The notes under the pieces: generated by a model
Told to the model about the DNA's origin: nothing
The model's database searches: none
Seen by the model: the letters and a program-made list of their open reading frames with translations, nothing else
Translations under genes and position numbers: made by a program
Shown here: piece by piece, positions 1 through 41,500 of the stretch
Position numbering within the stretch: the stretch's first letter is position 1
Layout of the letters: each line of letters opens with the position of its first letter
Source: Varroa destructor
Taxonomy: Eukaryota; Arthropoda; Arachnida; Mesostigmata; Varroidae
DNA length: 64,000 bases
Assembly: GCF_002443255.2 (NCBI RefSeq)
Contig: NW_019211458.1
Span: 15,495,939-15,559,938 of the forward strand
Direction of reading: 5' to 3'

Positions 1-131
1 AAGACGATCGTATTGATTTCACGATAGCAGATATACCATTACTTAGTAACCTCGGTTATATCTCAACTGCGAGCTTTCCCATGCATTGCAAAGTATTTGG
101 GGAAGCTCTCAAGGGTGCCGTTGTCGGGCAG
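1..131 (+). CDS. lin-41: lin-41/TRIM71 exon, start of filamin Ig domain (gene runs off left edge)
   Basis: This is the first visible exon of a TRIM-NHL protein, an E3 ubiquitin ligase and RNA-binding translational repressor. Reading from base 3 gives DDRIDFTIADIPLLSNLGYI and continues to ...GAVVGQ. This is the stretch that joins the coiled coil to the filamin-type immunoglobulin domain in TRIM71/LIN-41/Wech. The exon ends in CAG at 129-131, followed by a consensus GTAAGC donor at 132, so the intron is in phase 0. The 5' end of the exon, and the RING, B-box and coiled-coil exons, lie off the window to the left. The frame has no stop across the exon, and joining it to 378-625 gives an uninterrupted Ig domain. 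Confidence 0.88.
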
Positions 132-377
132 GTAAGCGCTGCATATTGTATATTCTCAGATTGGTTAGGTTAAACAAAGTCTATAGTAGAGAAAATCGCT
201 GTTGAAATGTCAGGTTTTTAGTTTCGACAATAGCTATCATTTTACTGTTTACGCAGAAGATCTTTTCCTGACATGTCAGATTTCTAAATGCCTATAGCAA
301 AACAACAAACAAAGTGGCCATTTCTTTGTATGGCAATTTATTTTTCTACAACGTTACCTTATCACTTGTATGAGCAG

Positions 378-625
378 ACTGCAACGTTTAAGGTTGAAGC
401 CTACAATCACCTGTCAGAGAAGACGATAGTCGGGGGTGAACACTTCATCGCGGCAATCACGACTCCACAAGGCTTCACCCAACGGGTCGACGCCAGCGAC
501 CATCGTGATGGAAGTTATTCATTCAGTTATAGACCGTGTATCGAAGGTCTGCACCATATGGTTGTAACGCTTCGGGGTGCTCCAGTTGCGCAATCCCCAT
601 ACAGTATCAACGTACGTTTAGGCAG
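378..625 (+). CDS. lin-41: lin-41/TRIM71 exon, filamin-type Ig domain
   Basis: This exon opens after an AG at 376-377 that is preceded by a pyrimidine-rich tract. It continues in phase 0 as TATFKVEAYNHLSEKTIVGG. It holds the body of the filamin/ABP280 repeat: AITTPQGF, then DHRDGSYSFSYRP and QSPYSINV, the typical closing strands of filamin repeats in TRIM71. In the family this domain lies between the coiled coil and the NHL propeller and helps RNA recognition. The exon ends after two bases of a split codon (AG at 624-625), with a GTGTGT donor at 626. The next exon supplies G to make Arg, giving G-R-S-Y as in TRIM71. An ATG at 288 lies upstream of the acceptor and is intronic. Confidence 0.93.
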
Positions 626-634
626 GTGTGTATT

Positions 635-687
635 GCCGCATAAAGACGGCTATTGAACGGCACGTTAAATACCCGTCTTTATGCGGC
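635..687 (+). repeat. Intronic inverted repeat, 15-bp perfect arms
   Basis: Positions 635-649 and 673-687 are exact reverse complements (left arm GCCGCATAAAGACGG) separated by 23 nt. The hairpin starts 10 nt after the 5' splice site of lin-41 intron 2 (donor at 626), so in the pre-mRNA it would fold next to that splice site. Its function is unknown. It could be a small foldback insertion. Confidence 0.8.
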
Positions 688-993
688 TTTAAGCGTGTTC
701 TGTGGCTTCGTTACTGTTCGAACTAGAAGAAACATTACGCGGCGTTTACGGCAGGGTCTGTGTGGTTGAATGACACGAAGAGTGAAAATCAAACTTCACT
801 GCAGATGCAATAACTTCGCTCGCCGATGATCCTTTACTTGTCGTTTATACAAAGCTGATTATATAGAGTAATGTGTTTCAAGTATAGCGATCAACTCGTA
901 AGTTAACTCAAATGTTTCGAATTTTTCTTTTCTATATATTGTATAATACTTGTTTGTATTATGCAATTGCTGATTATACCGTTACTGTTCTAG

Positions 994-1141
994 GTCATAT
1001 GAGAATCTTCCGAGTGAACGACCGATTGTGGTGTTTGGGGGTGAGGGTGAGAGAGAAGGTAAATTGTGTCGACCATGGGGAGTCTGCGTTGATCATCAGG
1101 GTCGCATCGTCGTTGCTGACAGATCTAATAACCGGATGCAG
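994..1141 (+). CDS. lin-41: lin-41/TRIM71 exon, NHL repeat 1
   Basis: The acceptor is TTCTAG, ending at 993. The first base completes the Arg codon split from the previous exon, followed by [20 protein letters not shown] and then [20 protein letters not shown] and [30 protein letters not shown] is the first NHL blade of TRIM71, almost residue for residue. The exon ends in CAG at 1139-1141 with a GTGAGG donor, in phase 0. Open frames in the other two frames here are shadows. Confidence 0.96.
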
Positions 1142-2488
1142 GTGAGGAGAATGCAAAAAAATCACGTCTTTTTTTTTTTATCAAGAATACCGACGGTAAA
1201 AAGCCAAACAGGAAGATAAAGGACACGAATGCACATATCGAAAAGGGCTTGCCCCTGACGTAGTACGTATGATAAATGGTGCATAACAGCACATTGCCAG
1301 CAATCGTCACTGACTCAATAACCGCTTTGGCAAATATAAACATCTTTAAAATGAAACTTAAGCGACATTTGTCCAGCATTGTGCTACAAAAAAACTACAC
1401 TATCTACTGCGGCAAATCGATTGTATTGTGCCAAAGTATCATACGTAAATAGATTTCCAAAAGGTTTAGGGCGTCACATCGTATCTAGCCAGTGGAATGC
1501 GTCTAAGACGAAGGACAATAACACAGGCGGTCGTGATTATTTCAAATAACTTCCGAATCAAGGGTGCTCTTGTTGCGTTGAACTCAGGATTTTTTTTCTC
1601 TAAACAAAAAAGTTTGACCGTACTAAACAAAGCTCTGTGATACATGTCGGCAGCGTGAAACGTACGAAGTGCTTAAAGTATATTTCTTAGGTATCGAAAC
1701 GGAGCATATATTAATGCGGTGAAGTCCATTCGAACATGAGAAAATTTAGTATCTCAGCAGCGTACAAAAAGAACAAGTCTACAAAAGGTATCAACGAACT
1801 TTGCTTCATCGATCGCAACTGGGTCCTTTTACAGCTTAACTTCGTGGTGACGAACTGACGCGCTTTGTAGACAATGCTGACCTCCCAATGATTTCTCCCA
1901 GAACTCAGACTCACGTTGCTTGTCTCGTTAGTGGTACCACACTCATGAGCTGCGCTCTCCTCTTCTATCTGTTGAGGTCAGAGAACGAGTGCATGGGTTA
2001 TCCTCGCTCACAGATGCTATGTTATGATCAACGGAGCGGACCAGGTCACATCCCACACCCCCGAGGAAACTGACGAGCAGCTTGACCTCAAACTAGAACC
2101 TAACCGTATTAACGGCTCTGCGCCTATATATCTGATGCTTGCTATCGTTTGTGCAGGAAGGGACTGAAAAAAAGGCTGTTGTTGATATAGACGAATCAAA
2201 CAATCCTGTCCCATTGAAACGGTACATAACCACTGACATATAGTCTAGTTACCCTTAAGTAAAATGCTCAGTTTATGTGTCGAATATTAACCGTGTCATA
2301 TTGAAATATCTGGTTCTCTCCAGAATTCCGAATAGTGTATCTGTAGTGATGATTATTACTAGCAGCATTCTATAGAATCATCGTAGGGATTGCCTGCACG
2401 TTACTCAACGTCTACTGGTTACATCACATGAAATAGATTAGGCTCTGTTGTCTGAGACAGCTATGAGTGACTTGCGCATTTGTTGCAG

Positions 2489-2629
2489 ATTTTTAACCCG
2501 GACGGTTCTTTCCACCTGAGTTTTGGGACTCCGGGCTCTCAGGCGGGCCAGTTTGATAGGCCAGCTGGGGTAACTATTGACTCTTCAGGGCGAATTATTG
2601 TTGCTGATAAGGACAACCACCGCATACAA
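2489..2629 (+). CDS. lin-41: lin-41/TRIM71 exon, NHL repeat 2
   Basis: The acceptor TTGTTGCAG ends at 2488. The exon has 47 codons reading [20 protein letters not shown], then [20 protein letters not shown] and KDNHRIQ. It closes at a GTAAGA donor (2630) in phase 0. [22 protein letters not shown] is the second NHL blade, and the order of blades matches TRIM71. No stop or frameshift is present. Confidence 0.96.
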
Positions 2630-2791
2630 GTAAGACATACGTCGTGTAGTTTCGGCTTTACTTCGATTTACCTTTAGTTATATGCTTCCTACTGACTATA
2701 AAATGTTTTCTGGTAGAGAAGCTGTTTTTACATTTAGTTGGTATAAAAGAAGCTGCCTAGGACTTCGACGCTGCTCCTGCCAAAATGGATA

Positions 2792-2811
2792 TCCTCCTCC
2801 TCCTCCTCCTT
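2792..2811 (+). repeat. (CCT)n microsatellite in lin-41 intron 4
   Basis: An uninterrupted run of CCT triplets sits upstream of the intron's 3' splice site. It adds pyrimidine content but lies about 50 nt before the acceptor AG. Confidence 0.9.
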
Positions 2812-2861
2812 TTATACTAAAGAAAACCTGATGGCCGTTTCAAATCATGTATTTGTTTCAG

Positions 2862-3102
2862 ATATTTTCGGGTAGAGGAGACTTCATAACCAAGTTCGGC
2901 GAACGAGGTTCGAAGCTCGGCCAGTTCAATTATCCATGGGACGTTGCGGTAAATGCCGATAATCAAATACTGGTGTCGGACACACGAAATCATCGAGTGC
3001 AGCTTTTCTCACCAGAGGGCGCCTTCATCAATAAGTACGGTTTCGAGGGAGCACTCTGGAAACAGTTTGACTCGCCTAGAGGAGTCGCCTTCGATCTTCA
3101 GG
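2862..3102 (+). CDS. lin-41: lin-41/TRIM71 exon, NHL repeat 3 and first half of repeat 4
   Basis: The acceptor TTTGTTTCAG ends at 2861. The frame gives [20 protein letters not shown], then [29 protein letters not shown] and [31 protein letters not shown] and [20 protein letters not shown] are signatures of the TRIM71 propeller. The exon ends one base into a codon (G at 3102) at a GTATGA donor. The remaining two bases come from the exon at 4694. Across the join the protein reads ...DLQG then [11 protein letters not shown], as expected in blade 4. Confidence 0.96.
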
Positions 3103-3430
3103 GTATGAGGCAAACGAACCAAACAATAGTAAAATCGATAATCTCTCGATCGCGTATTTTCCACCAATAACTCCTACGGAGAATAAACAAGTAGAAAATA
3201 TCGCGCAGTTGTTGTTATTGCCTGTAGGGTGTCTAGAGACAGTCGGAAGACATTCTATATCATTATTTTAAGTGAACACGAAAATGAAGTTAGACTTCTA
3301 CATTTTTTATCTCTTATATCATTTAACAATCACCTCTTAACGAGCTGAAATCAAGGATTTTCTGTTATCCTAGTTTCTGAACCAACCAGGTGGTTGTCTT
3401 CTATTATTTCCAAGTGCATTTCACGATAGT

Positions 3431-3450
3431 TGCTGCTGCTGCTGCTGCTG
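3431..3450 (+). repeat. (TGC)n microsatellite in lin-41 intron 5
   Basis: A short triplet run (TGC repeated) in the long last intron. Confidence 0.85.
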
Positions 3451-4487
3451 TAAATCGCCGCACGATGTACCCAAATTAATTACACTTAACGAAGCCATTA
3501 TATTTCGGTTATGGCTTCACGTAAAGGGCGCTTTCTCTCGCTGGCACTTTAGTTGTCGTGGGTCCGGCAAAGATCATACTAGAAGCTTCCGTTGGCGCTA
3601 TGGCTGTACATGTTTCTCATAAGCTAACAATACCAGCCGTTCATTTTTAAAACTTCAAGAATCTTTTATGTACGCAGTACATATATAAAATAAGAGACTG
3701 GCCTTGAAATTGCTTATAGCACAAGTGGGAAGGTCGACGTCGCTGGTCCATAGGTGAATTTACTCATCAGAAAGGACAATAGCTGTTCCAGCAGCTTCTG
3801 TTTACTAGAACGTCGCTAATCAGGCCCATTACGGAACGCGATAACGACAGAGAGAAGGGCTCCAGAGAGTCATGAAGTTCGGCAGAAACAGCTGGCCAAC
3901 ATTTTCATTTATGATGATAGAAACTTTTTTAAAGGCCGAATTGTCCATTTCACGGGAATCGCACAGAATCCGTAGACGGTCGTCGTTGACCGTTTGTAGT
4001 TAGTGGCCACTTTAGCGTCGCGTGTTTAGTTGCTAGCTACATTAGTGGTAATTTGTGACAAAGCGGAAAATCGAACATAACGAATTACGGCCACTGCTTT
4101 AATGTTTTGTGAATTTTTCTTAAAAAGAAAATGCCCAATAATTTAGACAGATTGAAAGTGACCTGATTTGGAGCCCAGTTTTGTAGCTTTCTGATGTGAT
4201 TACAACAGGATTCATACAGTAGCCGAACATTTAGATATCTAACCAAGTTTTTAGCTAAAAGAGCTGAAATCTCATCGTACCAAACCTGGTCAATACAACG
4301 TGGGCCGCATCACAATGAGACTAAATTTCCCTGCAAAAGCGCCTTAATTATAATCACACAGGTTAATCGCAGTTCTGGGGGTAGTTCTGAAATGTTTTTG
4401 GGACAAATTTAGAACTTAACGGTTTTAGAGCTTTACTTCAACAACCAAATAACCATTCTGTTATAGAACATTGACCGGAAAGTGAAC

Positions 4488-4533
4488 GTTTGACAGGGAA
4501 TGAATAGAACGTTCTATTCATTCCCTGTCAAAC
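4488..4533. repeat. Perfect 46-bp palindrome in the last lin-41 intron
   Basis: Positions 4488-4510 and 4511-4533 are exact reverse complements with no spacer (centre ...TAGAAC|GTTCTA...). The symmetry continues imperfectly outward to about 4470 and 4550. It lies in the 1.59-kb intron between donor 3103 and acceptor 4694. In RNA it would form a 20-bp or longer stem with a very small loop, and in DNA a cruciform. It is not part of any recognisable exon. Confidence 0.95.
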
Positions 4534-4693
4534 CTTTGGACCGTCATGGCTATTTGAAAGTCTGATAGCTATGAGCAATTGTACTTTTCATAACTGTATT
4601 TAGCTCTACCTAGATGCGACTATTTGAATAATTTTTCACAATAATAATATTGTAATTAATCTTAGATCGTCTAACAATAACAATCCTTCCCAG

Positions 4694-5025
4694 GTAACAT
4701 GGTCGTCACGGACTTCAACAATCACAGGATTGTCGTCATCCGAAATGATTTTCGATCGGCGCAATTTCTTGGCTTTGAGGGTTCGGGTAGTGGTGAGTTC
4801 ACGAGACCGCAGGGCATTGCAGTCGATTCTGAGGGCCATATCATCGTTTGCGACTCGCGTAACAACAGAGTCCAGGTTTTTCGGCCAGATGGCACATTTC
4901 TGTGTTCCTTCGGACAACCGGGAAGCGACTGCGGTCAAATGGATCGACCCTCAGGAGTAGCCATATCACCTGAAGGTCGTATAGTTATTGTCGATTTTGG
5001 AAACCATCGAGTGCAAATTTTCTAA
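4694..5025 (+). CDS. lin-41: lin-41/TRIM71 terminal exon, NHL repeats 4-6 and stop
   Basis: The acceptor TTCCCAG ends at 4693, and the first two bases complete a Gly codon. The frame reads [20 protein letters not shown] (end of blade 4), then [20 protein letters not shown] and RNNRVQVF (blade 5), then [20 protein letters not shown] and [10 protein letters not shown] (blade 6), ending at TAA 5023-5025. The protein stops right after the last blade strand, as in TRIM71. With the upstream exons all six NHL blades are present and intact. A 100-codon open frame on the opposite strand here is a shadow. Confidence 0.97.
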
Positions 5026-6092
5026 CGAAAAATGTTTTTGAAGAACGCATGAGACAGATTTGGCTAAGAAACTTCACTTGTTGCAAAAATTGGCTCGTAT
5101 CAATTTGTCTCGGAGAAAATCAGTATCGAAAACAGTGATGATAAATCATACGAATCATATCCGAAGTATAGTAATCCCAAACAAAGTTATTTTATCCTAA
5201 AATTGTACATGTAGAAGTACTTGGTGGATAGATATTTGCGCTTTTTTTTTCTCTATTAGTTTATATAACACAGTTTATTGCCTATTTAGATATCTCAATT
5301 TGGAGATAAAATATAAAATGCTTTTTTGCCTTGCCATCATGCTGCTACAGGTCGGTGTATATTTAATATGCACAATTACGATGACAAAGACTAATAAGTC
5401 TATCAACCTAAATGAAGTGTCGAGTAACGTTACAGAATTGCAATTAAGGCTCAATGTGTCGTATAGAACTCAATAATCTCATTATCAATACGGAGGTTCT
5501 AGAAAGCCTTAACCGTTCAGTAATAGATATCACAATGAACAACTCTAGGTGAGTCACAGACTATTTGCTTACTTGCGCCCCACCAAAAAGGGGCATCTGA
5601 TAAATTGCCTAGGAGGCCGACATTTGACTACTTCTGCAAGCATTACATTTTTGCAAACGGAATAGTTTGATAAGTGGAGGGTTCCTTCAAAAACGCAAAA
5701 TCGGCGAACAGAAAATCTTTTAATGGTTTCGAGAAAAAGCGTTAGAAAATACACGATAACTCTAAAAGCAAAGCATATGCCTATATCAAGGTTTTTGCTA
5801 CATGATATAATAACATTATTATTATTATTATGAACCTTCAAAGAGACCACCCTTGATGTCTCGAAGAAGTGGTGAGGGAATATGTCTCAGTCGTTGCCAC
5901 AATTACTGATTCAGGTATGAATCGAAAAGCGGGTGTTGGAACAAGTGACATGAAACAACTTTTATATTATAATAATTAACAAGCTAGACTAAATAGCGGA
6001 GTGTCGACTAGTCATACTAAGAAGGTTTATAGTCGAATTCTTAATTAGGACATTAAGCGGTTATCGGCGAAGAACTTTAGAGTAACGAAAGA

Positions 6093-6094
<2 letters not shown>

Positions 6095-6143
<49 letters not shown>
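6095..6143. repeat. (AT)n microsatellite, 49 bp
   Basis: An uninterrupted AT dinucleotide run inside the inferred lin-41 3' UTR. Confidence 0.97.
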
Positions 6144-6146
<3 letters not shown>

Positions 6147-6593
6147 AACTTAACGTTATTAGATTTTGCCCAAAAGTGTTTCCATCGACTATGCGTCCAA
6201 TCAAAAACTAGTAACCAAAAAAAACACTCGAAAATAACATTGTCCTCTTGGAAAACTGATAGCCGTTTTTCCTCATCATCAGTGAGGTTAAATCGGTAGA
6301 ACAGCATCTAAGTAACGGCGATTCCTATTGTACATACATATGGCATATAGCGCCGATTCTTGATCGTACAACGCGAATGAATGGTACGTCGCATCCATCT
6401 ACACGGGAATAATTAACGTTGTTAGTACATCACTGTTTTTAATTAAAAATGGTGACGGTAATTCATTTATAAGATGATTGGAGTAGTGGAAGGCTGCAGT
6501 CAGGATCTGCAGTTGCGTGTCTTGTCCACATTTTGCACGTTAGCCCCTTTCACTACTTGACCATCTACCTTGTCCAGACCTTACGCCGTAGCA

Positions 6594-6612
6594 TATACAA
6601 CCAATGATCTCA
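6594..6612 (+). promoter_or_regulatory. Possible second let-7 site (imperfect seed)
   Basis: TATACAACC at 6594-6602 is exactly complementary to nine bases of the 3' half of let-7. The CTCA at 6609-6612 pairs with let-7 bases 1-4. In between there are two G:U pairs and two mismatches, so the seed is broken. Worm lin-41 is also known to use imperfect sites, but this one could be chance. Confidence 0.35.
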
Positions 6613-6821
6613 AGTTGCATCAGAGTAGATCGGAGTTCCGGTAAATCTGAACCCCTCTGTCTAATTTACTTTCAGAAGCTGCAAAAACCTAACAGATGAC
6701 CGACCCTTAGGAGGTTGATATAATCTGGCGTGTGTGATCTCTAGTCATGCCCAACAATGTAATGATAGCCCTAGTAATTCCATATATAATATGTAGATGT
6801 TTAAGACAAAAAGAAAGTATA

Positions 6822-6908
6822 GGTGAAGGAGAAAAGTTGATGCTGAAGGAGGCTCGGGGTGCTTATGACGGTACCCAGTGCAAAACCGACTCGGTCACAA
6901 AGTTCCTA
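6822..6908 (+). repeat. Dispersed repeat, copy 1 (pairs with 15493-15579)
   Basis: This 87-nt block aligns without gaps to 15493-15579, with 65 of 87 bases identical by my count. In the frame starting at 6822 both copies stay open for 29 codons and share G-E-K..M...A.GA.D...CK.D...KFL. Several differences are silent third-base changes. It could be a fragment of an old transposon or retrocopied coding sequence. The family was not recognised. It lies between the two let-7 candidate sites. Confidence 0.6.
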
Positions 6909-7660
6909 CGAACGAAAGTTCCTATTAGGTAGAATGATTTCGGCACGAACAAGCTGATGGTTAATGAAACACGTACAGCCGTTTTGCGGCTTTGAACGCT
7001 TTAGTTAATAGGTATACTACTATAATATTATATAATATAATAATGAAAGCTGCTAGAACAACTTAGTTATTGTACTTTACATTATATATTTAGATATATA
7101 AATCTGTATAAAAGGTCGCGGTAAGATGATTCGTTGTATAGTGACATCTGTCAAGAGATAAATACTAGTGAATACAAAATACATAGGTCTTGTGTATAGT
7201 AAGATTATTATTGCTGGAAGTAACGACAACTTTACTCCTAAATAAAAATTGGCTTCAAGCGTAAGTGAAGGAACTATTTACATCTCGATAGGGAAAACAG
7301 TAGCTGAACAGTGATAAGTATGAACTTGACGATGCCACAGAAGGTTTCTACAGCAACTACCAAAGATGGAGAAACAACAAAGTGACAAGACGAAGAATAG
7401 GTCCTGCATAGATTTTCTGGCAACTAAATCGAGAAGAGCATTGTCACTTTTCAACCATAACATTAATACTGCTAATGCTAAATAATGAAAATAGTTGTAA
7501 ATTAGTTCAAGTTCCTACGCTGGTGACGACGGTGATGCTGCCAATGGCCGCAAAATCGCCGGAAATCTAATTTATTGGAAAATTTAACGAATGTAAAAGA
7601 GAAAAGAAGAGAGAAGTGTTAAAACGTATGGTTTAGTATCATCCGTCGCCAAAGGAGCAG

Positions 7661-7682
7661 ACTATACAAAATGGCTACCTCA
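7661..7682 (+). promoter_or_regulatory. let-7 microRNA target site in the lin-41 3' UTR
   Basis: CTACCTCA at 7675-7682 is a full 8-mer match to the let-7 seed. ACTATACAA at 7661-7669 pairs perfectly with nine bases at the let-7 3' end. The five unpaired target bases between them (AATGG) face four microRNA bases, forming a central internal loop. This seed / loop / 3'-pairing layout is that of the known worm lin-41 sites. Its place downstream of a lin-41 coding end, on the sense strand, makes coincidence unlikely. It lies 2.65 kb after the stop codon. Confidence 0.85.
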
Positions 7683-7768
7683 TTATCAAAATATTACACC
7701 TTTTACATACTTCACAAGCTATCTTTCATCTTTTCCGACTCAGATTTAGCTTCCCTGTTTCTAAGCAA

Positions 7769-7782
7769 CCCCCCCCCCCCCC
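7769..7782. repeat. C14 homopolymer
   Basis: Fourteen consecutive C residues, followed by GCCC. Homopolymers of this length are prone to sequencing and replication slippage. Confidence 0.95.
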
Positions 7783-7834
7783 GCCCTTCCATTCGCAGTC
7801 TGTTGACTGAGTTCCTATATTTATAGTATGTAGA

Positions 7835-7839
<5 letters not shown>

Positions 7840-7878
<39 letters not shown>
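7840..7878. repeat. (AT)n microsatellite, 39 bp
   Basis: An uninterrupted TA dinucleotide run. Reading frames that cross it encode only Ile/Tyr repeats and are not genes. Confidence 0.97.
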
Positions 7879-7879
<1 letters not shown>

Positions 7880-8630
7880 GTGTGTAGTAAGTAGAGATCT
7901 CCTTTTTGTCCTGTGCGAGTCTGTATGTATATGTCATATTCCATGATGCGTGTATTACACTACAGTGATATATAGGCGTAAGAATTGCATACCTGTTCCG
8001 TGTGCATGTAAGTGGCGTGTATGCCTGAATCATGTATGTGTCTCGCATCATAAAAGTAACATACATTACTCTAATGAAAAAAAAAAAGCTAAGGATGGTT
8101 ACTGTTAAAAAAAAACTGAGTGAATGGTTGGCAGCCAAACATCGCTTAACACTAAAGCTTTAACAATACCAGGTGTTATTGCTTGTGAAGATGAAATGAC
8201 AAAAAAAGATAAAATGTAACAGAGCATATTTTTTGCTCATTCAAAATCAAACGGCTTTGTCTACCTAATCAAGTCACTGACTAACCAATCAAGTGCCGAT
8301 GTTCATTTTAGAATGACGATAATCACGCATGATTCTACGATAGCGCCAAGACTAACAAGTATTCAAAAGTACCCAAATGAAAGAGTATCTGTTTCCTTTG
8401 ATAGGGAGAGCCCTACTATTGTATCTTGATCCGTCGGCGTAAATCGAGTCTATCGTATACGATAGGCGTCGATCTGTAGGTAGACTGACGTAAGTACTGT
8501 GCCTTTCAGTACATTGAGTTGATATAATTTTTCAGTGGAAAGAGATTGAGATAGCCTGGTGCAGCGCTTCCTATCCCATAATATCGTACTGTGCTAAGCT
8601 GTCGGGACGTTCTGGAGATGAGTTCGTATG

Positions 8631-8634
<4 letters not shown>

Positions 8635-8697
<63 letters not shown>
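8635..8697. repeat. (AT)n microsatellite, 63 bp
   Basis: The longest of three AT tracts within 2.6 kb (also 6095 and 7840). It is a perfect dinucleotide run. Frames crossing it are spurious. Confidence 0.97.
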
Positions 8698-8698
<1 letters not shown>

Positions 8699-8699
8699 C

Positions 8700-11600
8700 T
8701 ATCATTCATGCAGGACACGTCTCCCGACAGATATCAACCGCACAGGTGCTAGATTTTGGCCGCTAAAAATCTGACACAAGTACGAATCTCTCGAAGTATG
8801 ATAGCCGGCTAGCAGAAGGTGACGTAACAGGTAGAACATAAGTCACAGAAAACGTACAGGCAACCCTAACTACAACAATAATTTTAACCACAGCGGCGAC
8901 AGCAAAAGGTACATTGCGAGATTTTTCCTTTGCGTGATCTACCGACAATACGCGCTCTATATTTCTACGAAGCTCTCACCCACAATGGGTGTCTAATCTA
9001 CATTTATACATGTACTAAAAACATAATATATATAATGAAATGGATTGACTGGATGCGTGATTTCCAGATGAGTGATTTCAGGATTCGCCAAACTATCGGA
9101 TCTGTGAATAGTTTTGCTTGAATCAGTGTTCTGCAATTATGGAGAGGGAACCACGACCTCCCGTATAATTTTTAATGGAAGTAGGTGCCGAAGGTAGCAA
9201 CGGAACGGCAGACGAAAATTTCCTTAATATACATTTTTAAAACAATAACTAATGCTCAGGAAAGTAATACTTCTTTTTTAAAAATACATTATTTAAACTA
9301 AGCTCCTGATCTGCCGTGGTCTACCGCAGTAGCATGTGTCGATTATGAGGCCGTGCTTATCTTTTCTCGACAAGGTTTACCTCGTATGAATGGCGTTTAC
9401 GTTTTTTTCTTTCTATCCCGCTGAAGCACTAGGTAATATGAAGCAAGTGGCAAGAGGAGCTGGATTAGGTTCTTCCGTCTTAAAAATACTTATTCCATTG
9501 CAAGCGAGACCGTAGTCAGCTGTCAGTTTATGTACACTTTGAGATCTGGGAAAGACGTTGCAACGACGCATAAATGAATGCAGAAGGCATCATGAGCGCC
9601 ATGCAGTGTCACCGGACAATGGAAATCGGAGATGAACGGTCCATTTTTCTTTTAACTAACTCGTCTTAGGAGCTCAAGAAGCTCAACAGAAAACAAGCAA
9701 CAACCTTGAGACCACAACGCTGTATAGGCAAATGACATATATGTCTATTGATCTTAATGTTATTCTCATGGTAATTTACGAGCACCTTATACAGATGGAA
9801 CGTGTGAAAAAATTTTCTTACCATACCTTAGAAGCAGAAAGGTAGAAAACGATTGGTTCCGTAGTGATATTTTACGCTTGGTATGGATGCCATCTAATGA
9901 TAACTGTAGCATGATCTCTTATAATATCACCGACGTAAATGAATTTTCACTGATTTTATACCTATTAGTTGGGTCGATCGCTATGTGCGATGCGGCGACA
10001 CGAATGCGATCCGCCTTGATCTTGTCTTGGTGTAGAGGTTTGCAGCTCTTCTTTCCCTTCACTCATGTTGTTCATTCATGTTGTTTTTTGCACATACTTA
10101 CCATATTCCGATAAAAACTTAATTCGTTTGTCAATAATTACAAAATTTCCTTAAGTATCTTTTATATATAATAAGGCTGCAACTACTCATTAAGCACGAA
10201 TTAACTGATTTTTAGGGGTCGAGTTAAGTTTCCACTTGCCCAATTTGTGCACACACATCTATGTGACGGGGTGTAACCAATGGTATCTTATATAATACAT
10301 AATTATAGTTTACATGAAAGTGGAGTACCAATCGATATTAACAGAAAAGCTCGCAAACTATAGTATGGAAATGAGAACTACACGGATGATTTCTAACGAG
10401 AGGCACTTCAAGACAAGGCTTCTCCAACAAACGATGTCCAATTCAACATAAACTTGCCCTTATTAAATATGGAAAACTACCCTCTAAAATAAACTTAACG
10501 CTACACGTTTGAGCGGCTAAAAAAAGCATATCTTATAATATTATCAACATAGTTTCACGCCTGATATATACATTGATAGTCACAATTTCACCATATCTGG
10601 GCGCTGACTTGACGCCTCAATATTCCGTAATGTATGTTCACTTTATTTGTTAAAGCTAGACCGTTTTGTGCGATAAGGTTTAATTATTGGATTGAACTGG
10701 GTTAGCCCAGGAGCTCTCCTTTCGCCGTCTTTTTTGTTCTAGCTCATCATTTCAGTCCGGCATACTTTGGGCTGTGGATGTGGAACTCTTTGATTGAACT
10801 AACCATTTAACCAATACACAAGCGTGGACATAGATACTTTGCTAGTATTACCTCGAATGAGTATAGTCATAATATAATATATAACATGATATATATAATA
10901 ATAATAATATGTTGAGCGTTCACCTAAGAATGGCGCTGAACTTAAAATGGTCCCCTAGTGACCGAACGGAACCTGCGCCCACCTTGTAAATGGTGGTTAA
11001 ATAGCACCTGAGTGACTGAATGAACGAATATACTTACAAATTGCGCACCTGTGAAAACACAGTGCACTACAGAATATGAGCAGAAAACAAAATACACAAA
11101 AACAGAATCTATTTAAAAATACAAAGAAAATCAACGTATCTATTAAAAAAATGCGCGTAATAAATGTAACAAACGATACGCGAGCGTATATGTGAAATAA
11201 ACAAACAAAAAAAACTGATATGAATGAAATAAATGCCAAAAATACGTATTGTGGTAATTAACGATTAAGTGTTATTTACTGAAGAAAAAATTATGTATGA
11301 AGATATGTGCTTGCCATTAAAGATATATCTATGCATAAAATTTCTAGCAATTGAAATAGTAATTGTGAATCTTATGCGATTCGAAGCGTTTAATGAACTG
11401 CTGAGATATATCTCTCTCTTTTCGATTATTCAGCGATTTCTAACAGCTTTTTTTTTTTCGCATGCAATGTTTTGTTTTGATCGCACTATTCACCTTCTCA
11501 CTAGGCGTCCTATTCGAGACAAGATGTCACAAGTTGCTTTCATAACTTCTTGAGATCATGTGTGGAACAAAGAGTCCTTCTGTAGTTTTCAACACATCGT

Positions 11601-14600
11601 GAAAGAAAAATTAGGCGCTAGAGGTAAAAAAACAAAAGCTGAAATAATAATTGATTAACCTCATTTTATGCAAACATTCCTTTCTGAGAACCCGAATTTT
11701 CCATCCGTTTTTTTTTTCGTTTTAATGATTCAAAATAGCTTTTGCGAGATTTACACCTAGATTGCTTTCCTGTGTCGAAAACCGATATTCTCGATAAATA
11801 CGGAAAAAGTCCATAAAGGGATAATAGAGTGGAATTGAAAAATACGAGAAGAGCGTATACATATAAAGTATGACCGCAACCAAGAAATACTTAAATAAAA
11901 AACATGGGCCAACCCCACTGTAGTTATCTCCCAAAACAATGCGTCTTACTATATGCTACTATACTAATATATATAAAGAAAGCTGGAGAAAAAATAAGTA
12001 AAACCATAGGACTTCGTAATAGCAGGATATAATAGAAAACACCTTTCTTCTAAAAATTGTTGAGGTTCCCGTGGCCGTTGCTACAATAATATTCCGTATA
12101 TATACTCAGCTTAATCAATTCCATGTGAACTTATTAAAAAATGAGTTATTGTACTTTTAAGGTAATTCTAATGATATTCAAACATATTTAGCATTACGTT
12201 AAGCTTACAAAAACTTTTATTTGTTCTTCTCTTGACAGACATATGTGGAATATTTAAACTGTTAGGTGGAACTTGGGAATGTCTTTTAGAGGCCGATTTT
12301 GAAAAATTTAAACTGACTTTATTAACAGCGGTAGCACCTTTTACCATGTAAGAAAACATTGACCAACAGCAGCTCACTTACATAGACGCAGCGAGTTATA
12401 TATTAGCTTAACTTAACGCCAAAGTCTTTTGCTACAGAAAGAAATGTTCCGGCAGAGCTCGTTCATTGAATGTAAGACGCTTTTAATGTGTCCAGTGAAG
12501 CTGTTGCGCTATGCAACAATGGGTGCTAACGATCAAAAGTAAGGCTGGAATAACTTAGCGGGTCGAAAAGTTCGAGTTGCTTTTGAATTACGCATCGTTA
12601 GCAGACGAAATTTTTGTAAATATTTACATTGGGATTCTGGCTATGAGTAAAAATTGAGCAAAGGGGTCTTCACTTAAACAATACTTTGTTTGCATCCATT
12701 TTAAGAACGTCGATTAGAATGTTGAAGAACACAAACGAGGCGACCACATTTAAGGACTTCGAGCGGAAAAACGACCTGGTTTGCTCTCGAAAATTGTTGA
12801 GTTGGCATGGTTGATGCGTTACTTATCAAATTATTATAGTACGTCTTGAATTGCATGTTATGAAAGGCTAAGAAGAAGAGATGTTATGAAAGATAAATAA
12901 GAAGAGTACAAAATAGATTTGTTATGTGTAATGTTATTATTATTATATTGTTATATTAGCTACCACAAGCAAAATGCCCCCCTTTGGAATGCCATTGCTG
13001 TAAACAAGAAATTTGCGTCATCAGAGCATCTTGTCCTTCCTGGGATTAGTATATCCTTTCCGTGCTTTTTAGTTTTTCAATTTGATTACACCAGCAGTGA
13101 ACTGTCCTTTCGCTAAAGGCCGCTTTCCCCATGTTCCTCCTAACTTTTGGCGAGTGTAACCAGCGCTCTCAGCATTGAAAAGTGCCAAATTTATCATTAT
13201 GCATTGATTTTTGCTATTAAACAGTATCTCTGCTCCTAAACTCATTATTCTCTAATGAGACTGAATCAGTTTGTAGCCAAGGATAACCAATAACCTGAAG
13301 TAAATATTGGATGATCGAAAACAGATTGACGGTTTTTAAGCCAAAATTTAGATAGATATGGTTTATGTATTTCAAAGCAATAAGTTTGCCATTTTAACCG
13401 AGATCTATCTGCCATTTTTTTAAGTAATAAATATCACTTTATTTATGTGGTTCTTGGGAAAAAAATTGTAGCAAATAATTTTTGCGTTCCCTCGTTGAAA
13501 CTAGATTAACGCGATCAGGAGAGTGCTGCAAAGACCAAAGCAGAATAAACGATGAATACATCAAAATTTCCTATCGAACTTCTTTTAGTTTTTTTTTTTA
13601 CAGGTAGCTGAAGACGTATATGATTTGGCATATTTATAGTAACTACGACCCTTTTATTTTATCGATGTTCCAGTCGATATTATTTTTCTATTAGCGTATT
13701 ATATAGTAGAGATCCGAATCGATGGTTCCTCCAGGCGGCAGCGATTTATAATGTGCTATATAAATGAAACGATTCCATCCATGTCCTATCAAACACTTAG
13801 CATCGTCTGCTTTGGCGTCAGTCCTGAGCTTACAAACATCCTTCATCGTGTGGAAAAGCGTTTCGGTATGGAACAATCACTTCGTATAACAGTAAAACAG
13901 ACGGGCTGTCGAAACACGGACTAGACATAGGAAAATATTTAAACGGATAATTAGAACTAGCATTAGCCTACTAAATGCTTATTGTACAACGACTCGAATG
14001 AACAGACGTTATTCGAAATCACAAAATTGAGAAACACTCGTTACCAACTTCAGAAATTGGTACTTCATTGTTAACTCATTGCAAATCAAGCGAAACCGGC
14101 GAAGGGGTGTTTGTAAGCGGTTTTCTCAATCGGATTTTTTTTACATAAAAGACATTTGTCCAGACAGTCCATATTATACAAACGTTATAGTAACCATCGT
14201 AGTCATATGTAGCTTTAGTCATATAAGTTCATTCTTTTTAACGGAATGAGATCAAAAACACGCTGGACCTGAAGCTGCAGGTGTAATCTATTAGAATCCC
14301 GGCTTCGCAAAACAGTCGTCAGACTGGAGGCGTCTGTTTTAAAAAAATATTAGTGCATGGCGGGAAGTTTTCAAAAGATACTATAAATACTCGCAATATA
14401 GCATTAGCGTTTGCATAGTACTTCATGCATGTTAACAAAAAAGTGTCTTTCGTTCTTTCAGCGTGTAATACAGGATAAGGATCATGATGCTTTTTTTTTG
14501 ACAATATGATGCCTTTATAGTTGTATTGAGTAGTTTATGATTTAAAAATAATAAGTAATCTATAATTGGCATTCACTGATTTGAAAGAGACACGCGTCTG

Positions 14601-15490
14601 CAGAAAGACAGCAAAATCAGAGGTTCTAATCAACTTAATTCGTCGTTCCGGTGTCGTGGGAGCTAGTGGTCGTACTTGCGATTGCATACGTTTAATTCTT
14701 TCACAACTGATGACTAATCTTATCTTTTTATTTCATTTATTTCCGAGCTTACAAAGCCCTGCTTCTATATTAAGTAGAAAGAGTTTTTAGAAATAGATGT
14801 AGACTCTTGCTATGTCATCTGCGCATAGTTTTTTAGGGATGAAAAATAGTGTTTGCGGTGGACGTCTAGAGAAGCTAGTCTGTTAGCAGAACCTCGACGA
14901 ACGTCATAAGGCAACCATAAACCATTAGGAATGAGCCTGCTAAAATGTATGTTTAACGAATGTTTTGAACGTCCATCGAGTAACGTGAATCAGTGATTTC
15001 CATACATCTCGATTTCTTGTCCCACGTTAAGGACCCCAGGTAAGTAACAAACTCGAAAGCACCTCCAAGAGCGCGTTCTCTTTGTTGATATCCTTCGCCA
15101 TTATCTTCGAACAAGCCACTAGTGTATTTTTAATGTCTTTCCCAAGCTAAGAGGCAAATCTAGTGCTCATATATTATTATTATTATATGTTAATCGTATT
15201 TGAAAAGGACTCAGAACAGGTTTAGGTGAGGAGAACAGCTGCAGTCAATGGGACAAGTTGTCCTACATGAGCTAACTTCACATGCTAGATTTTTCTAATA
15301 TGGTGTTTAACCTACAATACACTATTTAAACGATATTTTTGCCTATAAAGTACGATTTCATTCGGTTGAATCTTTCAAAAAATAACTAACCTAAAAATTC
15401 GAACAGGCGACAAATTCCGAAAAGGTGGATATGGTTTATAACACGGTAGTTACTACTCTATGATAACTACAAAAGAAGAAAAAGACAATA
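8700..15490. other. Gene-poor interval
   Basis: I see no conserved exon here. The content is A+T-rich unique sequence with short AAT/TATA-type runs (for example near 10895-10910) and scattered poly-T. Open frames are all below 95 codons, mostly lack an ATG, and have the Ile/Phe/Lys-rich composition expected of random A+T-rich DNA. Confidence 0.6.
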
Positions 15491-15492
15491 AT

Positions 15493-15579
15493 CGTAAAGG
15501 AGAGAAGTTTATGATGATGAAGGCTTGGGGTGCTTTTGACGATAGACCATGTAAAAGTGATCCGATCATAAAGTTTCTA
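15493..15579 (+). repeat. Dispersed repeat, copy 2 (pairs with 6822-6908)
   Basis: This is the second copy of the 87-nt block described at 6822, gap-free and about 75% identical. Its frame reads RKGEKFMMMKAWGAFDDRPC and then KSDPIIKFL, and a stop follows about three codons later. I found no splice sites or start that would make it a gene by itself. Confidence 0.6.
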
Positions 15580-15599
15580 TTATATTAGGAATCGTAGCT

Positions 15600-17110
15600 G
15601 AGTCTACCTTTCTGTTTCAAGTTTTACGTCCGATATCGCCATTAACCATTCCACCAGACGGCCGGCTGGCTCCCAATGCGAAATGAAGAATTAGAAATGA
15701 AGGATAGAACCTAGATCACAACGTGACTGGCAGGCAATAGTGTCAGATTAACAATTTTTTTAAATTAGCGCTCAGACACTGTTTCTTCGTCGGCTGATAC
15801 GTGGCCGTTTATGTATTTTGGAAATGAGAATCAAAATCACAAAATGGATGTACGTGTAGATCATAAGATAACCCGTATAGCACAAATATAAACAAACAGG
15901 AGATCATATGGTAACAATATCTGTCTACGAAAACCGAAGAAAAAAATATAGAATTACAGATAAAAAAAAAATCAATGATACTCAATTGTAATTGTCGAAG
16001 ACAGGTTTCGAGGATGAAGGGGTCAGTTTTACTAAAACACACTACACCACCATCAAGGATCGCATTATTTTAACGATAATAATACTAATCCCTTCCATAA
16101 TGGGAGTTTTGACGAAAATCATTTTTTGTTTCTGTTGCGGTATTTTCTCCAGGAAACGGCATAGTTGTGAATTGCTTAGTTGTGAAGTTCTTCTGGCAGT
16201 TAAGAAAAAGATAAAAGCTTGAAAGTTAAGGTAGGTTTTAATTTGACATGCAGAAGTAGCTCAAGATAATGGGTCAGGAATAACTATGTCTAGGAGCACG
16301 CGGTACCTTGCACAGAATAAAGCATTTACATTTACGCAGAATTTTTGAGCAAATCTTTTGAGTTCTATGCTCGTATTGCTTCAGATGACGGGCTTCCAAC
16401 ACGAAATATTTCGTCGTCTTATGGAGTGATTAGCTGTAATGGAACACGAAGGAATGCGATTGGGGTACGTGGAGTGCGACAGGGAATGTTCGATTTGATC
16501 ATCCTAACGAGTGCACTGATGCTACCTAAATTCGACCTGCTACCAAATATACAGGGAAACTGGAACCTTTAAGATGTGTGCGCACCACAAAGTACCCGGA
16601 TTTTGGTCCTGTCTAATGGAGCAATTCGTAGAGTGAGGTTTTGAATACAAATTTCCAGCTTTAGCAGCAAATGTAGTAGACAGCAAACATGGCTGTCAAT
16701 CATGGATACCTGGAACTGTTAAATCTAGAGCAATAGAAAACTAAGCATCGTTAAAATGTGATTTGAAAAAGAATTTAGAATAGATTTATTACAACCAGCG
16801 AGCTTCTTTCAAACATCATAAGAATTCGGGGATAGCACGAGTTTGATACTTCTTCGATAGAGTACTGAAGCGCTATTGAACTTCACCAAATCATTTGTCT
16901 CAAACCCGATCGGCCTGTTTCAAATCATACAACGTCCGCTTCAGAAAGTACACAGGCGCGTTTAGGCAATTGCTATGTACCTCACGTAAAAGTCTACCTT
17001 CCTTTTACCAGTCTTACGACCCTAAGGGGCGCCTGGTCGCGCTGAAATGGCGGCGTGTATCTATGCGAAAACTATGCAATAGACTTTCGTTAACTGGCTT
17101 CGCCTAACCG
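15600..17110. other. No gene seen
   Basis: A+T-rich sequence between the repeat copy at 15493 and the 3' end of the minus-strand kinase-like gene. Only short open frames of unconvincing composition are present. Confidence 0.55.
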
Positions 17111-17114
17111 TGTT

Positions 17115-18338
17115 TTAGAAGCAATCATATTCATCATCATTTATATTTATGGCAGGAGTTTGAAAGCGAAGTTCATCCCTTGATGGTTCGATAAATTCGA
17201 GTGGAACAGGCATATACGGAAATCTGGGAAACAGTATTCTTTGCAGATATAGTGCTTTGAAATCTATTCCAACAAAGAAAACATGCCTTTTCATAGGGCT
17301 TTGTCCCGGTCGCTGGACGCCTAAACGGAACATCGGATCGACCCGAAGTGTCCAATACATGAAGTCTTTGGCTGCATCGCTAACGTCCTTAAAATAATCC
17401 TGCGAAAAACCATCTCCTATGGTCTGCCGTAGCTTTTCTTCGTTATACCTCGAATGCATAACCTGGAGAGGTGACTTACCATAGAGAAGTGCATGGGTCG
17501 TTATGCCCACCGTCCACCAGTCTACTTCTTTGCCGTAATACTTTCTGCACATAATTTCAGGAGCCATATAGTACAGGGTGCCGCGAAAGGTTCTAGTTCT
17601 GCCGTTCGCGCATTCATCCAGACATTTTGCTGCACTAAAATTAGCCAGTTTGATATAGCCGTTACACTGTATCCACATATTGCCTAGTCTGATGTCCCGG
17701 TGAATGATATTAGCAGCGTGGAGATATTCGACAACTAATACGAGTTGAGCTATCCAAAAAACTGTAAGATCTTCTCCTACGTGTTTGCAATTTGTGTAGG
17801 CAAGCAAAGTTCCGCAGGGTGAAAGTTCCATCATAAAGTAGATATACGCATTGTCGTAGAAAGTTTCATATAACGTTAAGATAAAAGGGTAGTCAACAGC
17901 TAAAAGAATATGCTTTTCACGCATTGCTGCTTTGCCATGATTCTGTTCCTTTTTAACTCTTCGTAAAGCGTATGACACGCCATTTTTGTCTCGTTTATCT
18001 ATACATTGAAGTATTGTAGTGTGTCCGCTAAAACCTAGTACCGCTATGAAATCAAATTCGTTACGGTGAAATTGTCCGGACGGTGGTGCTAACCTTGGTG
18101 CTCGCGTCAGCTGCCGGTAACGGGCCGTGAACTCTGCTACCTTGGCCTTTTGGTCATCTTCAAACGGACAGTCATAAATCGACGTACTTCGCTCTCCCAC
18201 TCCTGGCGAAGGTGTAGCCCATAGACATCCTTTATACCAACCAATATTATCGTTACCCACAAAATCCAACACAAGCGCATTTTTCCAGCCTCTTACTATG
18301 GAGAAAATTGTTTTGAATTTTGACACTCTTTCTCCCAT
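17115..18338 (-). CDS. Divergent PKA-catalytic-like protein, predicted pseudokinase
   Basis: A single 407-codon open frame with no introns. The ATG at 18336-18338 is chosen because it is the first in frame; the frame stays open without an ATG back to a stop at 18468-18470. The next figures number residues from an upstream TTG at 18380; subtract 14 to count from the ATG. The A-helix-like VAEFTARYRQ starts at 81 and the kinase domain is about 109-370. EKHILLAVDYPFI, EYLHAANIIHRDI, GYIKLANFSAAK, YMAPE and EVDWWTVG follow cAMP-dependent kinase order, with an AGC-type C-tail after it. The alpha-C Glu155, HRD Asp229, Asn234, activation-loop Thr264 and Asp287 are kept. The VAIK lysine is Arg140, the catalytic-loop lysine is Arg231, DFG is Asn-Phe-Ser (247-249), and only the first glycine of the P-loop remains. 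That predicts little or no phosphotransfer. The missing introns suggest a retrocopy. A broken paralogue lies at 22019-22904. Confidence 0.85.
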   Translation of the reverse strand: MGERVSKFKTIFSIVRGWKNALVLDFVGNDNIGWYKGCLWATPSPGVGERSTSIYDCPFEDDQKAKVAEFTARYRQLTRAPRLAPPSGQFHRNEFDFIAVLGFSGHTTILQCIDKRDKNGVSYALRRVKKEQNHGKAAMREKHILLAVDYPFILTLYETFYDNAYIYFMMELSPCGTLLAYTNCKHVGEDLTVFWIAQLVLVVEYLHAANIIHRDIRLGNMWIQCNGYIKLANFSAAKCLDECANGRTRTFRGTLYYMAPEIMCRKYYGKEVDWWTVGITTHALLYGKSPLQVMHSRYNEEKLRQTIGDGFSQDYFKDVSDAAKDFMYWTLRVDPMFRLGVQRPGQSPMKRHVFFVGIDFKALYLQRILFPRFPYMPVPLEFIEPSRDELRFQTPAININDDEYDCF

Positions 18339-18479
18339 CTTTGTGTGCCCGCTATTGGTACTGTTGGTGACAATGATCAATAGACTGGTCGAACGACATA
18401 CGGATGCTGACGAACTTCCGGTGTGACTGACAGCAGGGTACGACGATGGAATCTCTGGGACATAATTTTAGGTGGGTCT

Positions 18480-38500: not shown

Positions 38501-41500
38501 CGTAACTATGCTTTATCGTTAAATAGATAAAAACAAGTAGAGACCGTAGTTCGGCTCAAGGTCTTCTGTGGGCATATGTATTGCGTGCATAAAATCGATA
38601 TAATTAGAAATGGGAAAGCTTAATGACTATGTAGCCAAATTAGAGGACTAGAGTAAATTAGCGGGCGCTTTGATACCAAATCAGCGACTCTGGTTCATGC
38701 TGAGCGATCGATAGCAACGATAGGCTAGAGCGACAGAGAAAGGTGTCTAGAGTTATTTTGTTTTTCGCGGCTATTTAGCATTGATTGACGTTGCGGACGA
38801 AGTCAGAAGACATTTGAGGGATAATGTTATTTGCTAAAAATGGTATTAAGTTCAAAACTTTTGTCAACAAGATATGAACTGAGTTCGTGTAACTTAATAA
38901 TCTTTGACGAGCACTTCCCGTTGCGTTTGTCTTCTGCATAAGGTTTTTGTAACTTTCATCCGTTCCATTCAACCTTCCGCGTGTTAAGCTTCAGTTTAAA
39001 AATCCGGGAAAAAGCAAAGTCCATTCAAATTACGAATAGTCTTGTTAAGAGTCTCTCTTTGGAAGGGGATACTTCAGTGTTTTTTCCCACCTAAAACATT
39101 CTATTAAATACATGATTCGAGTGATACGAACCTTTTTTAGAGGTATCAGGGTTGCTCTGACTAAAACTATGATAAACATAACGTTTGCACAAACAGTACA
39201 GATAGAAAATAAACAAATAAGACTCTCAAGTCATCATAATACGAATAGAGAGTTTTGTGAACGAATACAGAATATATCTTTCGTAGTCCCGCCCAAGTTT
39301 ACCAGGGCAATTTTGCTAAATGGAGCAAACAGTTTACTATGAAAGAAAGTCTCTCTACAATATATGAATGAGTTAAATATTGTTAGCATAGATTGTTTTA
39401 TCATGCAGACAAGCTCTATCACGGCACCATATATATTGCCTTTCCCATATTGCTTAGGGGGCAAATTGAAATAATTCCTTGCGGGTCCCGTGATAATCGA
39501 TCAACGATATCACCAACAATCTTGAAGTCGGAATTATGGGTGTTCTTTATCGTACGACCGATGCTACGGCCGTCACCTTTTCACTGTAGAAGCTATCGTG
39601 ACAATCTCGTTTTATGAAATACGTCGAAGAAAAAATCCCAATATATAACGACAAAAATTCAGCGTTTGACTTGGATCGGGTGTTTGTCGCGCGCGGCCAC
39701 TAACGTTAAACTATTGGATTTTAATGATTACCGCAAGCGACGATATCGCACCGATGATTCTCACAGTAACGGTTCCAACAACAATTAACATGGAAGAAAA
39801 AATAACAAATGTAGGAACCAGCTGCAATTTTTAACGTTTTATATAGAACTTACTTTAATAATAGCTGACTAATAGTCAATTTGGATATGAAAGATTATCA
39901 GGGTTAATCGGTAGCGAGGTCAATACCTGTTCCATGAATGCTCGTCGTCGACGATCAAGCGAAATCAGAATCTAAACGTGTACGCTTTTTTGGCGCTTTT
40001 TACTATTAGCAATTAAGTTATTCATTATCAATTATAGTTATTTATAATGGGTAAGATGTTTTGTGACTGGTTATGTTGTAGCGAGATGTCCTGAATGAAA
40101 AACATCCGACGCTCATTTCCACGATCCGCTTATCATGTCCGTTTCCGTACTCTGGAAGCTGAAGACATGGTTATACGATTCAATGAAGAGTCAATTTCTT
40201 CAACTCGTGTTTTTTTTTGTTTGCATTGTGTATTGTTTTCTTCTGTTAGCACCAGCTTTGAACCATTCTCGCCATTTCTCGCGTATTCTTTTCGGAGTGG
40301 CTTCAGTTCTTTTGGAGTCGATAATTATACTACGGCCGTTTTCTTGTTTTTCTTTGTCTGATGTCACGATAAGACAACAAAGATAGTGTATTGAAACTAT
40401 CACGTACGTACTATGAGAACAAAACAATATATCTGAGGTTTCAATAACCCTGACAAATCGCTCCCAGACAGATCTGGCCGAACCTTCCATTAACCGGACA
40501 CCGCAGCCATCGCACCAGGCACGGGAAAAATCTATCAGGCTGTCACACGACGCAGAGTTAAGTTGTTGTTTGTTGTTTCAACGAACCTCCTTCGGATCTA
40601 TTCGACATAACCTCTTATCCTAATATTGACGAAAAAGGAATTCTCGAATCAAGAATATTTTCCCCAAAAGGGACAGCATTCGTTATCTCTGTGATGAAGA
40701 CGTGAAAAACATGAGGAAGAGTGACTGCTACCTCAGCGGCCTATAGTTACGAGTTGAACTGGAAGTTCGCATGATCTTCTCATTTTGTGGTGGGCCCCAA
40801 ATCATATGGCCGTAGCGCATTAGAATAATTACTGATGCGACAACGAAGGCGGATGGTGGCGCAGTTGCCGTTTCGAATCATAAGTATAAATGTATTCTAT
40901 CGCCGTGACTTCATCGGGCGTCCTACTTGTATCCATCGTCACCGCCACCATAACTAGCGTCGCCGCGACTGTGATTTGAATACATCCGTAATGTATGGCG
41001 CTGGTGATTGTCAAGAAAACAATATCTTTGCTTGTTCGCTGGTGGACCATTCTCGATTGAACAACTAACGAACAAGGACAATATGTGCAGGATGTAGGAT
41101 TGTGGCCACACGCAACGTGCCGCTTACCGCATCTCGCTCGCTCATGCCTGCGACGTCTGTCTGTCTGTCGGCGACCAGTTGCCCGTCAGTCACTGTCTTG
41201 CTGTTCGTGTTTCAGACATCAAGCTTCATGAAATATGTGACGCTGTCTGTTCGAAAGACGCTGTAAAGTGTTGCCGTTTCCCCTATCAAGATCAGGAGAC
41301 TTCCCATCGTCGTGTAAATATAATTACCGGTTCCTTCTATTTTTAATGCGCGGACAAATTCTGGAAGATCAGGACTAATTGAAGGTTCTGAATGTTTTCT
41401 TACAAGGCTAACCAAATGAAAAGTTCTTAGTCTTTGCCTGATATATTTAGAGGCTTGTGGTGTCCAACTGCTGTAAAATTGCTACTAGGGCGGAATAACC

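What the first reader, a model, noticed from the sequence alone, without database searches (positions are those of the whole stretch)
7661..7682. Textbook let-7 target site downstream of lin-41
Seen: an 8-mer let-7 seed match (CTACCTCA) and a separate 9-nt perfect match to the let-7 3' end (ACTATACAA), joined by a 5-nt internal loop, on the sense strand 2.65 kb after the lin-41 stop. Known: lin-41/TRIM71 is the founding let-7 target and its worm sites have this same layout. Inference: the let-7/lin-41 developmental switch is conserved here, and the 3' UTR is at least 2.66 kb long.
Basis: partly seen in the sequence, partly recalled or inferred. Interest (0 to 1): 0.75.

Follow-up and report, generated by a model that had tools for sequence, protein, structure and literature searches.

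The report
let-7 microRNA site downstream of lin-41
A bee-parasitic mite genome carries, behind its lin-41 gene, a strong match to the microRNA let-7, very probably part of a developmental switch long known in other animals, so it is an expected feature rather than a surprise.

Summary
In detail: 7661-7682 (+) reads ACTATACAA-AATGG-CTACCTCA, a full let-7 8mer plus nine pairs to let-7 positions 13-21. It is the strongest let-7 duplex found on either strand of the window. Shuffles rarely match it: 2 of 20,000 for the pattern, 0 of 1,400 for the energy. The gene is a TRIM71/lin-41 orthologue whose stop ends at 5025; the genome is most likely a Varroa mite's. let-7-5p is reported in V. destructor (PMC8966896, passages).

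Two corrections. First, the site does not have the worm layout: worm lin-41 sites have imperfect seeds and pairing from let-7 position 11 (PMC8940178, passages); this one has a perfect seed and pairing from position 13. Second, the 2.66-kb 3' UTR is unproven: an AATAAA at 7241 precedes the site, and the next is at 10488.

Conservation and transcript ends could not be tested. Verdict: most likely a real let-7 site, a new instance of a textbook interaction.

The parts
3..5025 (+). C-terminal part of the lin-41/TRIM71 gene: six coding exons (3-131, 378-625, 994-1141, 2489-2629, 2862-3102, 4694-5025), filamin domain plus six NHL stretches; stop codon ends at 5025. The 5' part lies outside the window.
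   Evidence: Exons set by hand at AG/GT borders, one open frame of 412 aa; TRIM71 structure 6fpt E 8.1e-156; Tropilaelaps mercedesae TRIM71-like 94% identity over 64% of query; Pfam NHL (6 stretches) and Filamin.
7661..7682 (+). Site 1: canonical let-7 8mer (7675-7682) with 3'-supplementary pairing to let-7 13-21 (7661-7669); linker AATGG, offset +1
   Evidence: -25.8 kcal/mol, best of window; shuffle controls.
6594..6612 (+). Site 2 (candidate, weaker): 3'-compensatory-like let-7 site; TATACAACC pairs let-7 11-19, seed region GATCTCA with a G:U at position 5 and a mismatch at position 7; offset 0
   Evidence: -19.5 kcal/mol, second best in 5026-10500; such a pattern in 142 of 5,000 shuffles of the stretch, so weak on its own; pairing detail.
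7241..7246 (+). Canonical poly(A) signal AATAAA between stop and site 1; if used, the short mRNA keeps site 2 and loses site 1
   Evidence: the 50 bases examined downstream are not G/U-rich (0.48), so its use is uncertain.
10488..10493 (+). Next canonical AATAAA on the + strand beyond site 1 (an ATTAAA lies at 10462)

Best explanation
7661-7682 is a let-7 target site in the distal 3' UTR of the Varroa lin-41/TRIM71 mRNA. Argonaute loaded with let-7 would dock through a complete 8mer seed match and be held further by nine pairs to let-7 13-21 across an internal loop of five target and four let-7 nucleotides, leading to translational repression and decay of lin-41 mRNA when let-7 rises in development. 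Shown here: the sequence, its complementarity beyond chance, and the identity of the gene. Inferred: transcription through the site, let-7 binding, repression and its timing.
For: Exact match. Best let-7 duplex on both strands of the 64-kb window. Shuffle controls 2 of 20,000 and 0 of 1,400. It lies on the sense strand behind a secure TRIM71 orthologue. The three ORFs of at least 100 codons between 5026 and 12000 have no Pfam match (0 of 3); no ORF of 130 codons or more is listed from 12000 up to the kinase ORF at 17115-18467 on the minus strand; genes made of small exons would be missed by this. let-7-5p is reported among conserved predicted miRNAs of V. destructor (PMC8966896, passages). let-7 sites in lin-41 3' UTRs are stated to be conserved throughout bilaterians (PMC4382986, abstract and passages).
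Against: AATAAA at 7241 could end the mRNA before the site. Local accessibility is only moderate: P(8-nt seed unpaired) 0.07, 69th percentile of 5026-9000; local fold unremarkable, z 0.52, 141 of 200 shuffles fold as well. No relative's 3' UTR could be read, so conservation is untested. The miR-125 6mer TCAGGG does not occur on the + strand between 5026 and 10500 (seed recalled), although miR-125 sites are said to accompany let-7 sites in bilaterian lin-41 (PMC4382986).
Confidence: 0.78

Rival explanations
1. The site is real in sequence but outside the main lin-41 mRNA: the transcript ends after AATAAA at 7241, so let-7 control, if any, runs through site 2 or other weak sites, and site 1 serves only a long isoform or none.
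For: AATAAA at 7241 is the one canonical signal between stop and site 1; the next is at 10488. Accessibility of site 2 is better than that of site 1 (about the 90th against the 69th percentile).
Against: Long lin-41/TRIM71 3' UTRs are common (recalled). The downstream context of 7241 is not G/U-rich. A chance match this good just beyond a transcript end would be a coincidence.
Confidence: 0.14
2. Chance complementarity without function.
For: The seed alone is at chance level in the window.
Against: Pattern in 2 of 20,000 shuffles; energy not reached in 1,400 shuffles; position behind the best-known let-7 target gene.
Confidence: 0.05
3. The site belongs to another transcript, for example an unannotated non-coding RNA or an antisense gene in the gap 5026-17115.
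For: The gap is 12 kb long and untested by RNA data.
Against: No Pfam match in the three ORFs tested, no Rfam match in the window at the gathering threshold, sense orientation relative to lin-41.
Confidence: 0.03

Closest known systems
C. elegans lin-41 3' UTR let-7 complementary sites (the two LCS)
   Same: Same gene family, same microRNA, same strand and 3' location, nine base pairs to the let-7 3' region, a linker offset of +1.
   Different: Worm sites are 3'-compensatory, with imperfect seeds and pairing from nucleotide 11, 46 nt apart (PMC8940178, passages). Site 1 here has a perfect 8mer and pairing from nucleotide 13. The candidate partner, site 2, is worm-like in its 11-19 pairing but has offset 0, a poor seed, and lies 1070 nt upstream (position 1 to position 1).
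Canonical 8mer site with 3'-supplementary pairing (general animal miRNA target class)
   Same: Watson-Crick match to positions 2-8, A opposite position 1, pairing that covers 13-16.
   Different: 3' pairing is long (nine pairs, ten with a G:U).
let-7 sites in vertebrate TRIM71 and other bilaterian lin-41 3' UTRs
   Same: let-7 sites stated to be conserved across bilaterians (PMC4382986, abstract and passages).
   Different: miR-125 sites, said there to be conserved too, were not found: no TCAGGG between 5026 and 10500 on the + strand (seed recalled).

Membership tests
Canonical let-7 8mer target site | Watson-Crick match to let-7 2-8 plus A opposite nucleotide 1 | tested here: met
   CTACCTCA at 7675-7682
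Canonical let-7 8mer target site | Complementarity beyond chance | tested here: met
   2 of 20,000 and 0 of 1,400 shuffles; the seed alone is at chance
Canonical let-7 8mer target site | Lies in the transcribed 3' UTR of the mRNA | not testable with these tools
   No transcript data; AATAAA at 7241 precedes the site
Canonical let-7 8mer target site | Conserved in related species | not testable with these tools
   By their descriptions the collections open to me hold prokaryote genomes, phages, plasmids and viral contigs, no mite genomes; I ran no collection scan
Canonical let-7 8mer target site | Accessible in the mRNA | tested here: inconclusive
   P(unpaired) of seed 0.07, 69th percentile
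Canonical let-7 8mer target site | let-7 present in the species | not tested
   Reported for V. destructor in PMC8966896 (passages); my search for the let-7 gene in the own genome did not complete 8 times
Worm-type 3'-compensatory lin-41 site | Imperfect seed compensated by 3' pairing | tested here: not met
   Site 1 has a perfect seed. Site 2 does have an imperfect seed (G:U and mismatch)
Worm-type 3'-compensatory lin-41 site | 9 bp starting at let-7 nucleotide 11, offset +1 | tested here: not met
   Site 1 pairs 13-21, offset +1; site 2 pairs 11-19, offset 0; definition from PMC8940178 (passages)
lin-41/TRIM71 orthologue | Filamin plus six NHL repeats, closest to TRIM71 among TRIM-NHL proteins | tested here: met
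   TRIM71 chains 449-522 bits against 227 for Thin, 188 for TRIM2 and 125 for Brat; Pfam; among the 120 listed of 5570 matches, most of those with an informative source name are TRIM71 or LIN41. No tree was built.

The most novel reading that the evidence does not exclude
The Varroa lin-41 3' UTR carries two let-7 sites of different class on either side of a poly(A) signal: a proximal worm-type site without a good seed (6594-6612) and a distal canonical 8mer (7661-7682). Alternative polyadenylation at 7241 would then switch the mRNA between weak, 3'-end-dependent and strong, seed-driven let-7 control.
Probability: 0.1. Interest if true: 0.5.

Novelty: new member of a known kind. Interest (0 to 1): 0.3.

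Why it matters
It would add a chelicerate, a major honey-bee parasite, to the animals whose lin-41 carries a let-7 site. The architecture bears on a specific question. In worms the imperfect seeds matter: sites changed to perfect seed pairing cause precocious repression by other let-7 family members (PMC8940178, passage, citing Brancati and Grosshans 2018). A perfect 8mer here suggests that this constraint is absent in mites, perhaps because there is only one let-7. That is an inference: PMC4987109 (passages), which included V. [quoted passage not shown]

Tried and rejected
Rejected: that the seed alone is notable (3 seen, 3.88 expected). That the site lies in a repeat: the direct-repeat families found in 5026-11500 (AT microsatellites and weak short pairs) do not cover 7661-7682; of 200 inverted pairs only the 25 longest were shown, none over the site. 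That it is part of a known structured RNA: no Rfam match in the window at the gathering threshold, local fold z 0.52. That a recognisable coding gene covers it: three ORFs tested, no Pfam match. Site 2 as strong evidence: its pattern occurs in 142 of 5,000 shuffles of the stretch; window-wide the pattern gives 4 hits at 3 loci (site 1, site 2, and one minus-strand locus in two registers) against 1.47 expected per shuffled window; I defined the pattern after seeing the site. Nine places on the two strands, site 1 included, have a stronger let-7 duplex than site 2, and one more ties with it. In its favour, a second-best duplex of -19.5 or lower occurred in 4 of 1,000 and 1 of 400 shuffles.

Full report
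The site. At 7661-7682 on the + strand the window reads ACTATACAA AATGG CTACCTCA. Against let-7 (sequence recalled) the last eight bases are a complete 8mer: Watson-Crick pairs to positions 2-8 and an A opposite position 1. The first nine pair with positions 13-21, and G7660 can add a G:U to position 22. The predicted duplex has -25.8 kcal/mol, with let-7 nucleotide 9 possibly joining by a G:U. The target linker is one base longer than the let-7 linker, an offset of +1.

Chance. The 7-base seed match is ordinary: 3 in the window, 3.88 expected. The combination is not. A 7mer-m8 seed with at least eight contiguous pairs to let-7 9-22 within ten bases occurred once in the real window, both strands, in 2 of 20,000 shuffles of 5026-7700, and twice in all in 300 shuffles of the whole window. 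Its energy was the best in a scan of the whole window in 4-base steps, both strands; the runner-up was -23.7 on the minus strand. None of 400 shuffled let-7 sequences against 5026-7725 and none of 1,000 shuffles of that stretch against let-7 reached -25.8; the lowest were -25.7 and -25.1 (shuffles were scanned in steps of 5, the real stretch in steps of 2).

The gene. Six exons with AG/GT borders, set by hand, join in one frame of 412 residues ending in a stop at 5025. The protein has a filamin domain and six NHL stretches. It matches TRIM71 structures at 449-522 bits against 227 for Drosophila Thin and 125 for Brat. The closest listed protein is TRIM71-like of the mite Tropilaelaps mercedesae, 94% identical over 64% of the query; only proteins of 0.55-1.75 times the query's length were candidates, so longer TRIM71 models could not appear. 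A kinase ORF at 17115-18467 (minus) is 100% identical over 38% of its length to a Varroa jacobsoni protein, so the window is most likely from Varroa; the species is not settled.

Is the site in the 3' UTR? It starts 2636 bases past the stop. Between stop and site there is one AATAAA, at 7241, and one ATTAAA, at 6442, besides many weaker variants; beyond the site the next of these two kinds are ATTAAA at 10462 and AATAAA at 10488. The 50 bases examined behind 7241 are not G/U-rich (0.48). Local accessibility is moderate (0.07 for the seed, 69th percentile) and the local fold is unremarkable.

A second candidate. The second-best duplex in 5026-10500 is at 6594-6612, TATACAACC AAT GATCTCA, -19.5 kcal/mol. 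It pairs let-7 11-19, the segment used by the worm lin-41 sites, and has a defective seed (G:U at 5, mismatch at 7). On its own it is weak evidence: similar patterns arise in 142 of 5,000 shuffles, nine places in the window, site 1 included, have stronger duplexes, and let-7 binds poorly to 3'-only sites (PMC12529927, passages). It is more accessible than site 1 (about the 90th percentile, measured over 6594-6601 and 6606-6613). As a second site behind the same gene it is worth testing.

Comparison with worms. PMC8940178 (passages) describes both C. elegans lin-41 sites as 3'-compensatory: imperfect seed, nine pairs from nucleotide 11, offset +1, 46 nt apart. It reports that sites changed to perfect seed pairing cause precocious repression by other let-7 family members, and that for let-7, pairing 13-21 helps less than pairing 11-19. 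Deletion of the worm sites shows how much the interaction matters there (PMC6435043, passages).

Literature. let-7-5p is listed among the conserved predicted miRNAs of V. destructor (PMC8966896, passages; its main text has no occurrence of lin-41, TRIM71 or miR-125). PMC4382986 (abstract and passages) states that let-7 and miR-125 sites are conserved in lin-41 across bilaterians; the + strand between 5026 and 10500 has no miR-125 6mer TCAGGG (seed recalled). In the held library no paper contains both lin-41 and Varroa, and the one with TRIM71 and Varroa is, by its title, a honey-bee transcriptome study (listing only). That covers open-licence papers only.

Verdict. The let-7/lin-41 reading is probably right and expected. 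Transcript end and conservation, the two decisive tests, could not be made here.

Noticed in passing
   Followed up: yes
4488-4533: Perfect 46-base palindrome in the last lin-41 intron; origin unknown, perhaps a mobile-element remnant.
   Followed up: partly
635-687: Hairpin with 15-bp perfect arms in the intron just after the filamin exon.
   Followed up: partly
17115-18467 (-): Long uninterrupted protein-kinase ORF (450 codons stop to stop); of 31 proteins matched, only the window's own copy and a V. jacobsoni protein are at 100%, the other 29 at 40% identity or less.
   Followed up: partly
7134-7142 (+): TTGTATAGT, the exact complement of the site-1 3' arm, about 520 bases upstream; probably chance, but it could pair with the site within the mRNA.
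   Followed up: no
40728-40735 (+): A second full let-7 8mer, CTACCTCA, without long 3' pairing; the seed is at chance level in the window.
   Followed up: partly
5026-10500 (+): No miR-125 6mer TCAGGG in the presumed 3' flank, although let-7 and miR-125 sites are both said to be conserved in bilaterian lin-41.
   Followed up: partly
about 6095-6143, 7843-7878, 8635-8698: Long pure AT microsatellites in the presumed 3' UTR.
   Followed up: no
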